Assembly (NCBI RefSeq): GCF_003002815.1
Contig: NZ_PVTF01000015.1
Location: forward strand, 186,001 to 250,000
Source of the DNA: Umezawaea tangerina
Lineage (GTDB): Bacteria > Actinomycetota > Actinomycetes > Mycobacteriales > Pseudonocardiaceae
Length of the DNA stretch: 64,000 nt
Reading direction: 5' to 3'
Positions 6,299 through 49,801 of the stretch are shown one piece after another; position 1 is the first letter of the stretch; every line of letters begins with the position of its first letter. The translations under genes and the position numbers were made by a program. The notes below the pieces were generated by a model. It saw only the letters and a program-made list of their open reading frames with translations. It ran no database searches and was not told where the DNA came from.

Positions 6299-9120
6299 AT
6301 GGCTGGTTTCGACTCGACGTCCGACGACGCCATCGCCGTCATCGGGATGGCCTGCAGGCTGCCGGGAGCGGACGGCCCGGCGCGCTTCTGGGACCTCCTG
6401 CGCGACGGCCGCAGCGCCATCGGCGACCCGCCCGCCGGTCGGGACGACCTGCCCCGGCGGCCGGGCGGCTACCTGGCCGACGTGCGCGGGTTCGACGCGG
6501 CGTTCTTCGGCATCAGCCCGCGCGAGGCGACCGCCATGGACCCGCAGCAGCGACTGGCCCTCGAACTGGCCTGGGAGGCGCTGGAGGACGCCCGCGTCCT
6601 GCCCGCGGCGCTGGCCGGGACGCGGACGGGGGTGTTCGTCGGGGTCATCGCCGACGACTACGCGGCACTGGCCCACCGGCGCGGGATCCACGACATCGGG
6701 CAGCACACGCTCACCGGGCTCAGCCGCGGCGTGCTGGCCAACCGCGTCTCCTACACCCTCGGGCTCACCGGGCCGAGCGCGTCGGTCGACACCGGCCAGT
6801 CGTCCTCGCTGGTCGCGGTGCACCTGGCCGCCGAGAGCCTGCGGCGCGGCGAGTCGTCGACCGCGCTCGCGGGCGGGGTGAACCTGAACCTGGCGCCGGA
6901 GAGCACCGCGAGCGTCGAGGAGTTCGGCGGGCTGTCGCCGGACGGCCGCTGCTACACCTTCGACGCGCGCGCCAACGGGTACGTGCGCGGCGAGGGCGGC
7001 GGGTTCGTGGTGCTCAAGCCGCTCGCCGCCGCGCTCGCCGACGGCGACCGGGTGCTGTGCGTGCTGCGCGGCAGCGCGATGAACAACGACGGCGCGACCG
7101 AGGGCCTCACCGTGCCCGGCGCCGACGGGCAGCGGGACGTGCTGCGTCAGGCCTACGAGCGCGCCGGGGTGCGGCCGTCGGACGTGCAGTACGTGGAGCT
7201 GCACGGCACCGGCACGCGGGTCGGCGATCCGGTCGAGGCGTCCGCGCTCGGCGCCGTCCTCGGCGCGGACCGCGCGGACTCCGCGCTGCTGGTGGGGTCG
7301 GCCAAGACGAACGTCGGCCACCTGGAGGGCGCGGCGGGCATCACCGGCCTGCTGAAGGCCGTGCTGAGCATCCGGCACCGCACGCTGCCCCCGAGCCTGA
7401 ACTTCGAGACCCCCAACCCGGCCATCCCGTTCGCCGAGTGGGGGCTGGACGTGCCCCGCGACGCGCGGCCGTGGCCGCACCCGGACCGGCCGCTGGTCGC
7501 CGGGGTCAGCTCGTTCGGCATGGGCGGCACGAACTGCCACGTGGTGCTGTCCGACTGGCCCGCCCCGGACCCCGTTCCCCAGGCCCCCGCTCCCCCGGTC
7601 GACGTGACCGGTCCGGTGCCGTTGCCGCTGTCGGGCAAGTCCGTCGGAGCGCTGCGGGCGCAGGCGGCCGCGCTGGGGTCGGTGGACGAGGACGTGGCCG
7701 CGGTGGCGGTGTCGCTGGCGTCGACGCGGACCGCGTTCGACCACCGCGCGGTCGTGCTGGGCGGCACCGCGGGCCTGGCCGCGCTGGCCTCCGGCACTCC
7801 CTCACCGGGCGTGGTGACGGGGTCGGTGACGCCGGGTGGCCTGGCGTTCCTGTTCTCCGGACAGGGAAGTCAGCGCGTCGGCATGGGGCGGGAGCTGTAC
7901 CAGTCGCAGCCGGTGTTCGCCGCGGCGTTCGACGAGGTGTGCGCCGCGTTCGACCGGCACCTGGAGCACCCGCTCAAGGTGGTGGTGTTCGAGCGCGAGG
8001 ACCTGCTCGACCGGACCGAGTACACCCAGCCCGCCCTGTTCGCCGTCCAGACGGCGCTGCACCGGCTGGTGGCGCACCACGGCGTGACGCCCATCGTCCT
8101 CATCGGACACTCGATCGGCGAGCTCACCGCCGCGCACCTGGCCGGGGTGTTCTCGCTGGCCGACGCCGCGACCCTGGTGTGCGCGCGGGCCCGGCTCATG
8201 CAGGCCCTGCCCGCGGGCGGTGCCATGGCGGCGCTCCAGGCCGACGAGGCGGAGGTGTCCCGGTGGCTGGTGCCGGGAGCGGGCGTCGCCGGGCTGAACA
8301 GCGCCGACAACACCGTCGTCTCCGGTGACGAGCAGGCCGTCCTCGCCGTCGCCGCGCAGTGCCGGGCGGCCGGGCGGAAGGCCACCCGGCTGCGGGTCGG
8401 CCACGCCTTCCACTCGCACCACCTCGACTCCATGCTCGACGAGCTCACCGCCGTCGCGGAGACCCTGACCCACAACCCGCCGACCCTCCCGGTCATCTCC
8501 AACCTCACCGGTGGGCAGGTCACCGCCTACACCCCCGACTACTGGGCCCACCAGGCCCGCGGCGCCGTCCGCTACCACGACGGCGTCACCACCCTGACCG
8601 CGCTCGGCGTCACCAAGGCCCTGGAACTCGGCCCCGACGCCACCCTCAGCGCCCTCACCCCCGGCGGCACTCCCCTGCTGCGCAAGGGGAAGCCCGAGGA
8701 CGAGTCGTACCTCACCGCGCTCGCCCGGCTGCACGTCCGCGGTGCCGCCGTCGACTGGACGGCCGTGCTGCCCTCCGCCGCGCCGGTCGACCTGCCGACC
8801 TACCCGTTCCAGCGCAAGGACTTCTGGCTCGGCGGCACGGTCACCGCCGCACCCGCGTCCGTCGCACCGAGCGCCGACCAGCTCGACCTGGTGCGCGCGC
8901 ACGTGGCGGCCGTGCTCGGCCACGGCTCGGCGGACGACGTGGCCGTCGACTCGGTGTTCAAGGACCTGGGCTTCGACTCGCTGACCGCCGTGGAGCTGCG
9001 CGACGCGCTCGGCACGGCCGTCGGCCTGTCCCTGCCGTCCGGGCTGCTCTACGACCACCCCACGCCCGCCGCGCTCGCCGACCACCTGCGGGACCTGCTG
9101 GCGGGCGTCGACCGGAGCGC
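6299..9120 (+). other. PKS loading module KSQ-AT(malonyl)-ACP
   Basis: The ketosynthase active-site cysteine is replaced by glutamine (VDTGQSSSL), the hallmark of decarboxylating KSQ loading modules. The AT has GHSIGE and HAFH, which mark malonyl-CoA selection, so the starter should be acetate made by decarboxylating malonyl-ACP. The ACP motif is [12 protein letters not shown]. Confidence 0.93.
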
Positions 9121-49500: not shown

Positions 49501-49801
49501 GCGCGCCCGGCTGCTCGGACTGGACGACGCCGAGGCCGAGGCGCTGCTGCTGGACCTGGTGCGGACGCGGACCGCGCTGGTGCTGGGCCTGGCCGCGGTC
49601 GACGCCGTGGACGTCGACACCGGGTTCCTCAACATCGGCATGACCTCGTTCACGGCGCTGGAGCTGCGCAACGGGGTGGTCGCGCTGACCGGCGTCGAGC
49701 TGTCCGCGGTGGTGCTCATGGACAACCCGACCCCGCGCGGCCTGGTGGCGCTGCTGCGGGCCGAGCTCGTCGGCCGAGCCGACGCCACGCCGGTGCTTTA
49801 G
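46571..49801 (+). CDS. Type I PKS 4: terminal module 8 (KS-AT-ACP) without reductive domains or thioesterase
   Basis: This 1076-residue monomodular PKS has an N-terminal docking coil ([21 protein letters not shown]). Domains: KS (Cys206, DTACSSSL), AT (Ser650, GHSVGE with HAFH, malonyl) and ACP (Ser1026). No DH, ER, KR or TE is present, so the chain leaves this module as a beta-ketothioester. That is the form needed for tetronate closure by the KAS III-like enzyme. The ACP attachment motif is unusual, [12 protein letters not shown], where the other modules have GFDSLT. Residues about 900-965 ([18 protein letters not shown], then LPALTAWRQ) look like the linker that normally precedes a KR, suggesting KR loss. 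It overlaps the PKS 3 stop by ATGA. Confidence 0.93.

What the first reader, a model, noticed from the sequence alone, without database searches (positions are those of the whole stretch)
6299..49801. Assembly line predicts a C24 tetraene exomethylene tetronate
Reading the modules gives tetronate-CO-C(Me)=CH-CH2-CH2-CH(Me)-CH2-(CH=CH)2-C(Me)=CH-CH=CH-CH3 (18 backbone carbons, three methyls, three glyceryl carbons). The alpha-methyl enone next to the tetronate could accept an oxa-Michael attack to form a fused pyranone. The polyene could react with the exomethylene. Using the diene made in modules 2-3 would close a 13-membered carbocycle by my count. From memory, okilactomycin is also a C24 tetronate-derived compound with a fused pyranone, so it is a comparison worth making, not an assignment. 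The pattern does not match abyssomicin (six extensions).
Basis: inference. Interest (0 to 1): 0.8.

Follow-up and report, generated by a model that had tools for sequence, protein, structure and literature searches.

The report
Tetronate assembly line lacking known spiro-cyclase

Summary
The module reading is right. Loading KSQ-AT-ACP plus eight modules, all expected motifs intact, give a C24H30O4 acyl exomethylene tetronate; genes like abyA1-A5 sit just upstream. The proposed fate of the chain (13-membered spiro-carbocycle, okilactomycin-like) is not what the gene content favours. The AbyU spiro-cyclase family (Pfam PF18678) has no match in this genome, but has one in 38 of 48 other genomes chosen for their tetronate loci. 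The cluster carries two flavoproteins of the broad family that holds the decalin-forming Diels-Alderases TedJ, ChlE3 and PyrE3. Both lie outside that proven clade. FAD1 belongs to a supported group of 8 with an [IV]SGTQ stretch not seen in the other 34 aligned rows; 5 of those 8 genomes have no PF18678 match. Sister clusters with nearly the same eight-module plan occur in Actinomadura litoris and A. macra. The chain is also laid out for a trans-decalin: dienophile C4=C5, four sp3 carbons, diene C10-C13, with carbon branches at C4 and C8 as in nomimicin. I favour a decalin tetronate that keeps its exomethylene (about 0.45). Okilactomycin-type closure stays possible (about 0.2). No chemistry was tested.

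The parts
232..1188 (+). AraC-family regulator (DJ-1/PfpI plus HTH_18)
   Evidence: Pfam
1309..2340 (+). A1: KASIII-like, condenses/releases the tetronate (AbyA1-like)
   Evidence: Pfam ACP_syn_III; A1-A2-(74-75 aa frame)-A4-A5 in the same order in A. litoris and A. macra; 72% identical to Frankia AgB1.9
2345..4216 (+). A2: FkbH-like glyceryl transferase (AbyA2-like)
   Evidence: TIGR01686 E 4e-84
4213..4437 (+). A3: stand-alone ACP for the glyceryl unit (GTG start, GWDS motif)
   Evidence: read by eye from the translation; no family search was made with it
4434..5195 (+). A4: 2-oxoacid dehydrogenase-type acyltransferase (acetylates the tetronate, by analogy to AbyA4)
   Evidence: PF00198 E 3e-23
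5192..6286 (+). A5: exomethylene-forming eliminase, AbyA5-like
   Evidence: PDB 4ywf AbyA5 E 8e-102
6299..24133 (+). PKS-A: loading KSQ-AT(mal)-ACP; M1 mal DH KR; M2 mmal DH KR; M3 mal DH KR
24136..35283 (+). PKS-B: M4 mal DH KR; M5 mmal DH ER KR
35316..46574 (+). PKS-C: M6 mal DH ER KR; M7 mmal DH KR
46571..49801 (+). PKS-D: M8 mal KS-AT-ACP, no reduction; terminal ACP has TS in place of DS
49902..51128 (+). P450a; 71-72% identical to the P450 of the A. litoris and A. macra clusters
   Evidence: Pfam
51393..52580 (+). P450b; 52 and 58% identical to two adjacent P450s in the Frankia AgB1.9 cluster
   Evidence: Pfam
52620..53540 (+). F420-type LLM oxidoreductase (TIGR03620); 62% in Frankia AgB1.9
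   Evidence: (E 3e-77)
53559..53975 (+). SnoaL/NTF2-like protein, 138 aa, candidate cyclase or dehydratase
   Evidence: PF12680 E 2e-8; only weak relatives: 10 of 48 other tetronate genomes (best E 8e-8) and 8 of 389 other genomes of the family (best E 2e-13, 31-42% identity)
54134..55621 (-). FAD1: flavoprotein on the tetronate side of the tree, outside the proven decalin-cyclase clade
   Evidence: best solved relative TedJ 8R1R E 6e-99; tree; residues
55715..57148 (-). MFS exporter, 57-59% in A. litoris and A. macra clusters
   Evidence: Pfam
57277..58755 (-). FAD2: second flavoprotein, own branch with A. macra, A. soli and Frankia AgB1.9
58897..59490 (+). TetR-type regulator, 49-50% in A. 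litoris and A. macra
   Evidence: my reading of the translation (not scanned against Pfam)
59911..62757 (-). LuxR-family LAL regulator
   Evidence: Pfam AAA_16 plus GerE

Best explanation
The cluster makes a C24 acyl exomethylene tetronate and most likely folds it, after or during release, by an intramolecular [4+2] reaction of the alpha-methyl enone C4=C5 with the diene C10-C13 across the four sp3 carbons C6-C9. This would give a trans-decalin with a 1-methylpenta-1,3-dienyl side chain and a surviving exomethylene tetronate. One of the two flavoproteins, more likely FAD1, is proposed to catalyse this. The two P450s, the LLM oxidoreductase and the SnoaL-like protein then decorate or bridge the scaffold, much as P450 TedH does in tetrodecamycin. 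Shown: the gene set, module order and motifs, no PF18678 match, family placement of FAD1 and FAD2. Inferred: the decalin, which enzyme makes it, and every tailoring step.
For: PF18678 has 0 matches in this genome and matches in 38 of 48 others with tetronate loci, S. abyssomicinicus among them. In the tree, 39 flavoproteins, nearly all from loci picked for tetronate genes, separate from 21 hydroxylase and generic rows at 100/100. TedJ, ChlE3, PyrE3 and Tmn9 lie in a 20-row clade at 100/100; FAD1 (8 rows, 100/99) and FAD2 (4 rows, 100/95) are separate branches on the same side. FAD1's best solved relative is the decalin cyclase TedJ, PDB 8R1R. The abyssomicin genome G397 has no FAD1 relative at E <= 1e-70. 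The chain C2-C13, with branches at C4 and C8, matches the carbon pattern of the decalin of nomimicin B (C25 on C4, C26 on C8) in the paper's text and table. The A. litoris and A. macra clusters have the same layout except AT1, also with Gln in the loading KS, and share P450a, FAD1 and MFS. Tetrodecamycin is the precedent of a decalin tetronate with a free exo-alkene.
Against: FAD1 and FAD2 fall outside the clade of proven decalin cyclases. PMC13273814 calls Pro12, Glu32, His97, Asp280 and Pro287 universal in decalin cyclases (passages). All 19 decalin-clade rows aligned here keep Pro287; none of the 8 FAD1 rows does (Ile 6, Val 2). His97 is no guide: 10 of those 19 rows, TedJ included, have Gln there, as FAD1 does. 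FAD1 has Pro at position 74, where 15 of 19 decalin-clade rows have His and 4 have Phe; one hydroxylase (4K5R) also has Pro. The Actinocorallia cluster of nearly the same plan carries both a FAD1/FAD2-like protein and a TedJ-clade protein, which argues that the FAD1/FAD2 type does something else. Hydroxylases score close behind TedJ against FAD1. Three flavoproteins from tetronate loci (L057, L064, L096) fall on the hydroxylase side, so such loci can hold plain oxygenases. Six of 41 non-FAD1 genomes also lack PF18678.
Confidence: 0.45

Rival explanations
1. One reading: the exomethylene reacts with diene C12-C15 (modules 2-3) to a spiro-cyclohexene in a 13-membered carbocycle, and an oxa-Michael closes a fused pyranone, as in okilactomycin. 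FAD1, FAD2 or the SnoaL-like protein replaces AbyU.
For: Carbon count and ring count fit (and arithmetic). Okilactomycin has a spiro-cyclohexene and a 2,6-cis-tetrahydropyranone (passage) with a 3-methylidene group (passages). The LLM oxidoreductase, SnoaL-like protein and two P450s could supply reduction, ring closure and methyl oxidation (inference). Two flavoproteins outside the decalin clade leave room for a new spiro-cyclase.
Against: No PF18678 match in the genome. The propenyl end group (module 1) would leave a double bond that my recalled okilactomycin formula (C24H32O6) does not seem to allow. I know of no spiro-cyclase of the flavoprotein type (recalled).
Confidence: 0.2
2. FAD1 and FAD2 are oxygenases or epoxidases, and the tetronate stays linear or closes spontaneously to a pyranone. 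There is no enzymatic [4+2] at all.
For: Hydroxylase-type structures (4K2X, 4K5R) score close to TedJ against FAD1, and five PDB sequences of that type score above ChlE3 against FAD2, two of them PgaE. FAD2 keeps the Pro and the GQG stretch of hydroxylases. Three flavoproteins from tetronate loci lie on the hydroxylase side of the tree.
Against: FAD1 and FAD2 sit on the tetronate side of a 100/100 split from 21 hydroxylase and generic rows. A linear product would not need a chain laid out for cyclisation (inference).
Confidence: 0.2
3. Two cycloadditions by two flavoproteins: one makes the decalin, the other adds the exomethylene to the left-over diene C14-C17, giving a compact spiro-bridged decalin tetronate without any AbyU-type protein.
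For: FAD1 and FAD2 occur together in the window, A. macra, A. soli and Frankia AgB1.9. The chain has two diene/dienophile pairs.
Against: Four of the 8 FAD1 rows have no FAD2-clade partner in the tree. After the decalin, the second closure makes only a 7-membered ring (atoms spiro C, C4', C2, C3, C4, C13, C14).
Confidence: 0.1

Closest known systems
Tetrodecamycin cluster (TedJ decalin cyclase, P450 TedH)
   Same: Tetronate from a type I PKS and a glycerol-derived C3 unit; TedJ is the closest solved relative of FAD1; P450 present. In a TedJ-like cluster of Streptomyces sp. TSRI0107 (64% to TedJ) the genome's only PF18678 hit is on another contig.
   Different: FAD1 is not in the TedJ clade. 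Here there are two flavoproteins, two P450s, an LLM oxidoreductase and a SnoaL-like protein. The chain is C24 against C18 (the latter recalled).
Class II spirotetronates (chlorothricin ChlE3/ChlL, kijanimicin, nomimicin)
   Same: AbyA-type tetronate genes; the C4 and C8 branches and C10-C13 layout that gives the trans-decalin.
   Different: No PF18678 match in the genome; no flavoprotein of the ChlE3/TedJ clade in the window.
Class I spirotetronates (abyssomicin, AbyU; okilactomycin and chrolactomycin by structure)
   Same: Five tetronate genes, exomethylene by AbyA5-like enzyme, polyene chain.
   Different: No PF18678 match here. The abyssomicin producer S. abyssomicinicus has PF18678 and no FAD1 relative at E <= 1e-70.
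Unassigned sister clusters in Actinomadura litoris (L131-L135), A. macra (L156-L160, L191), Actinoallomurus soli (L233, L234), Frankia sp. AgB1.9 (L171, L232)
   Same: FAD1 clade; in A. litoris and A. macra the eight-module layout is the same except AT1. A. soli has malonyl-type AT1 and methylmalonyl-type AT2, like the window (partial).
   Different: A. litoris and A. macra have an SDR, a ferredoxin-like frame and an NTF2-like protein of another subfamily. The Frankia contig has two P450b-like genes and a protein that reads like a Rieske ferredoxin.

Membership tests
Acyl exomethylene tetronate clusters (AbyA1-A5 type) | KASIII-like, FkbH-like, ACP, acyltransferase and AbyA5-like genes next to the PKS | tested here: met
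   (the ACP by eye); same order in A. litoris
Acyl exomethylene tetronate clusters (AbyA1-A5 type) | last PKS module malonyl, without reductive domains, no thioesterase | tested here: met
   module 8 is KS-AT(HAFH)-ACP, no thioesterase family listed
Class I spirotetronate (AbyU-dependent; okilactomycin by structure) | AbyU-family (PF18678) spiro-cyclase | tested here: not met
   0 matches in the genome as held; S. abyssomicinicus rings. That okilactomycin needs this family is inference.
Class II spirotetronate | decalin-cyclase-clade flavoprotein (ChlE3/PyrE3) | tested here: not met
   FAD1 and FAD2 lie outside the 20-row clade, 100/100
Class II spirotetronate | PF18678 spiro-cyclase | tested here: not met
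Class II spirotetronate or tetrodecamycin type | chain with dienophile, four sp3 carbons and diene for a trans-decalin | tested here: met
   modules 3-7; carbon pattern as in nomimicin B
Decalin cyclase family (TedJ, ChlE3, PyrE3) | Pro12, Glu32, His97, Asp280, Pro287 (ChlE3 numbering), stated as universal in PMC13273814 | tested here: not met
   Window FAD1 keeps Pro12, Glu32, Asp280 and lacks His97 and Pro287; His97 is also missing in 10 of 19 decalin-clade rows, Pro287 in none
Okilactomycin | product with spiro-cyclohexene and 2,6-cis-3-methylidenetetrahydropyran-4-one | not testable with these tools
   needs isolation of the product; structure words
SnoaL/NTF2-fold cyclases | SnoaL-type fold and activity | tested here: inconclusive
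   PF12680 E 2e-8; model pLDDT 47, not usable

The most novel reading that the evidence does not exclude
FAD1 is a new kind of tetronate cyclase: a flavoprotein that evolved apart from the decalin cyclases (no Pro287, Pro at position 74) and takes over ring closure in a group of tetronate assembly lines most of which have no AbyU-type gene in the genome. It would yield a tetronate scaffold that is neither class I nor class II, which marker-based mining with AbyU would have missed.
Probability: 0.25. Interest if true: 0.75.

Novelty: new variant of a known kind. Interest (0 to 1): 0.5.

Why it matters
Diels-Alderases of tetronate pathways are few and closely studied. A group of clusters that keeps the tetronate and polyene machinery but, in 5 of 8 genomes, shows no AbyU-type gene, and that carries a separate flavoprotein clade, makes a clear test: which protein closes the ring, and which ring? 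A product that kept the exomethylene would be a reactive antibiotic candidate, since conjugate addition to the exo-alkene is proposed to matter for tetrodecamycin activity. Published mining used AbyU homologues as the marker (passages), so such clusters would be overlooked.

Tried and rejected
The SnoaL-like protein as the general substitute for AbyU: rejected as a general rule. NTF2-like genes occur in the same stretch as FAD1 in A. litoris, A. macra, A. meyerae and Actinocrispum wychmicini C2 (there about 9 kb away), but the window's protein is of another subfamily, and Frankia AgB1.9 has no match to it. FAD1 is the shared part.

FAD1 as a plain member of the PyrE3 clade: my first idea after the TedJ match, rejected by both trees.

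A. macra as an exception with PF18678: its gene lies 25 kb from A5 (the S. abyssomicinicus gene itself is 18 kb from its A5) and 18 kb from the LAL gene. Of the genes called from there to the LAL gene, with the amidase beside it, I scanned 10, the PF18678 gene included: amidase, epoxide hydrolase, MarR and LysR regulators, a frame without a clear family, asparagine synthase, sugar-type transporter. I think it is not part of the cluster, but this is open, and the genome is counted as having PF18678.

Association of FAD1 with missing PF18678: absent in 5 of 8 FAD1 genomes against 6 of 41 others, Fisher p 0.009. A first version, 5 of 7 against 6 of 42, p 0.004, used a stricter identity cut. The groups were defined after seeing the hits, the genomes are related and several are fragmented, so this is weak. 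Not every genome was tested: 49 were searched, the own one included, while the scan kept 80 of 184 relatives.

Structure of the SnoaL-like protein: single-sequence model, pLDDT 47, dropped without a fold search. FAD1 was not modelled. An orthologous cluster in the family: only weak SnoaL relatives in 8 of 389 other genomes. FAD1 at E <= 1e-100 appears in 4 of 397 genomes of the order: the own genome and three with 45-46% relatives, which I did not place in the tree. PHROGs gave nothing for the SnoaL-like protein.
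Full report
WHAT IS THERE. The window is G000:C15:186001-250000 of a 10.68-Mb genome in 34 contigs. The family is probably Pseudonocardiaceae: contigs of 'same family' genomes match in length Actinokineospora inagensis (116,777 bases) and Amycolatopsis sp. CA-126428 (52,511 bases) (inference). From 1309 to 6286 lie five tetronate genes in the order A1 (KASIII-like), A2 (FkbH), A3 (ACP, by eye), A4 (acyltransferase), A5 (AbyA5-like; E 8e-102 to PDB 4ywf). Four PKS genes follow to 49801, then two P450s, an F420-type LLM oxidoreductase and a SnoaL-like protein on the + strand. 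FAD1, an MFS exporter and FAD2 are on the - strand, with TetR and LAL regulators beyond.

THE MODULES. A script that cut the PKS at each KS and printed the motifs gave a KSQ loading module and eight extenders. Malonyl-type ATs in 1, 3, 4, 6, 8; methylmalonyl-type in 2, 5, 7; DH and KR in 1-7; ER in 5 and 6; none in 8. The linear product is C24H30O4. Stereochemistry was not worked out.

THE CHAIN CAN CLOSE IN TWO WAYS. Counting from the lactone carbonyl, the chain is C2 (ring), C3 keto, C4(Me)=C5, C6 to C9 saturated with a methyl on C8, C10=C11, C12=C13, C14(Me)=C15, C16=C17, C18. That is the carbon pattern of the decalin in nomimicin B, where C25 is on C4 and C26 (hydroxymethyl) on C8 (first part of the paper seen). 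In pyrroindomycin a flavoprotein makes the decalin and then a beta-barrel enzyme the spiro ring; ChlE3 and ChlL do so in chlorothricin (first part seen). For tetrodecamycin the parts I saw name only the flavoprotein TedJ as Diels-Alderase.

WHICH CYCLASES ARE PRESENT. PF18678 (AOC_like) has no match in this genome, with 21-22 candidates scored. It has matches in 38 of 48 other genomes that I chose from the A5 scan. The S. abyssomicinicus hit lies 18 kb from its A5, which I take as the AbyU-type gene. The genome thus has no such gene within the limits of a 99.5%-complete draft. FAD1 and FAD2 belong to the flavoprotein family of TedJ, ChlE3 and PyrE3. FAD1's best solved match is 8R1R (E 6e-99), which the TedJ paper names as TedJ. 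FAD2's best matches are hydroxylases (PgaE, E 5e-109). I call 4K2X OxyS in the trees; that name is recalled.

TREE. A first tree of 37 rows and a second of 60 rows, with 15 further flavoproteins from the same genomes, Tmn9 and more FAD1 and FAD2 rows added, agree. 39 flavoproteins, nearly all from loci picked for tetronate genes, fall on one side of a 100/100 branch from 21 rows: 4 characterised hydroxylases, 14 of the 15 added generic rows, and 3 rows that do come from tetronate loci (L057, L064, L096). Within the 39 the proven cyclases lie in a 20-row clade (100/100). FAD1 forms an 8-row group (100/99): window, A. litoris, A. macra, Actinocrispum wychmicini C2, A. meyerae, Actinoallomurus soli, Frankia AgB1.9, Frankia AiPa1. 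FAD2 forms a 4-row group (100/95): window, A. macra, A. soli, Frankia AgB1.9. The root is a midpoint, for drawing only.

RESIDUES. In an alignment of 42 rows, all 8 FAD1 rows have Ile or Val at ChlE3 Pro287, in the stretch [IV]SGTQ, which none of the other 34 rows has. All 19 decalin-clade rows there keep Pro287. All 8 have Pro at the position of ChlE3 His74, where the decalin clade has His (15) or Phe (4); the hydroxylase 4K5R also has Pro there. PMC13273814 calls Pro12, Glu32, His97, Asp280 and Pro287 universal in decalin cyclases and ascribes a substrate hydrogen bond to His74 (passages). By my alignment 10 of 19 decalin-clade rows, TedJ among them, have Gln at 97, so only Pro287 separates. 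FAD1 fails a stated feature of decalin cyclases and I do not file it as one; that lowers 'it is a decalin cyclase', not 'it closes a ring'.

RELATED CLUSTERS. A. litoris: loading KS with Gln in place of Cys, then mmal, mmal, mal, mal, mmal(ER), mal(ER), mmal, mal: the window's plan except AT1. It shares P450a (71%), FAD1 (58-61% by the call), MFS (58%), TetR (49%) and LAL (33%). A. macra has the same plan, FAD1 and FAD2 side by side, P450a 72%. A. soli has a malonyl-type AT1 and a methylmalonyl-type AT2 as in the window, with both flavoproteins between PKS genes; its PKS was read only in part. Frankia AgB1.9, fragmented, gives the closest A1 (72%) and A5 (63%) of the loci compared, FAD2 60%, LLM 62%, P450b-like 58% and 52%. 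Actinocorallia sp. API 0066 and A. syzygii C3 have similar plans and flavoproteins near, but outside, the FAD1 group. Actinocorallia also has a TedJ-clade protein. PF18678 has no match in the FAD1 genomes G000, G403, G758, G441 and G401. It is present in G405 (25 kb from A5; see Tried and rejected), in G400 (on the contig of that genome's other tetronate cluster) and in G434 (another contig, unresolved). That is 5 of 8 without it, against 6 of 41 other genomes (p 0.009; groups chosen after the fact, genomes related).

WHAT FOLLOWS. The chain, the missing AbyU family and the presence of TedJ-related flavoproteins point to a decalin tetronate with a free exomethylene; tetrodecamycin is the nearest precedent. 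The distance of FAD1 and FAD2 from the proven cyclases, and the Actinocorallia cluster with both types, keep this at a little under even odds.

LITERATURE. Searches: okilactomycin (15 papers listed), spirotetronate with cluster and Diels-Alderase, tetronate with SnoaL, tetronate with 13-membered, chrolactomycin, AbyU with PyrE3 and TedJ, Umezawaea/Frankia (the genus name was my guess). None of the listed titles describes a cluster of this type; several lists were cut. The library holds open-licence papers only, so this is not proof of novelty. Seen of PMC12380092, PMC13273814 and PMC8404215: the first part (and passages of the first two); of the other papers cited: passages only. Okilactomycin facts taken from passages: spiro-cyclohexene, 2,6-cis-tetrahydropyranone and a carboxyl group, 3-methylidene. 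Its formula C24H32O6 and its 13-membered ring are recalled.

Noticed in passing
window 49559-49756 (module 8 ACP) and terminal ACPs of seven other tetronate clusters: The last ACP lacks the usual Asp before the phosphopantetheine Ser: TS in the window, and TS, NS or SS in the 7 others looked at (8 of 8), while the window's eight other PKS ACPs have DS. It may mark the ACP from which the tetronate enzyme takes the chain.
   Followed up: partly
L137 4611-7718 (Actinocorallia sp. API 0066): A tetronate cluster of nearly the same eight-module plan carries a FAD1/FAD2-like and a TedJ-clade flavoprotein side by side, with genes that read like peptide-type ABC transporters nearby.
   Followed up: partly
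L152-L153 (Actinocrispum wychmicini C2): Second tetronate cluster of this genome; two modules read as KS-ACP without AT. Assembly fault or real skipping was not decided.
   Followed up: no
L084 11568-13559 (Streptomyces sp. TSRI0107): Protein 64% identical to TedJ about 1 kb from an AbyA5 homologue; the genome's only PF18678 match is on another contig, so a likely tetrodecamycin-type cluster.
   Followed up: no
G000 contigs C7, C16, C21, C22: The genome has 83 ketosynthase matches, many in very large frames (up to 9432 aa), so it is rich in other polyketide clusters.
   Followed up: no
window 63191-64000: Start of what looks like a SARP-type regulator (my reading of the translation; no Pfam match to the cut frame), running off the window.
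   Followed up: no
L232 14917-15237 (Frankia sp. AgB1.9): A small protein that reads like a Rieske ferredoxin lies between the LLM and two P450b-like genes of the FAD1/FAD2 locus (by eye).
   Followed up: no
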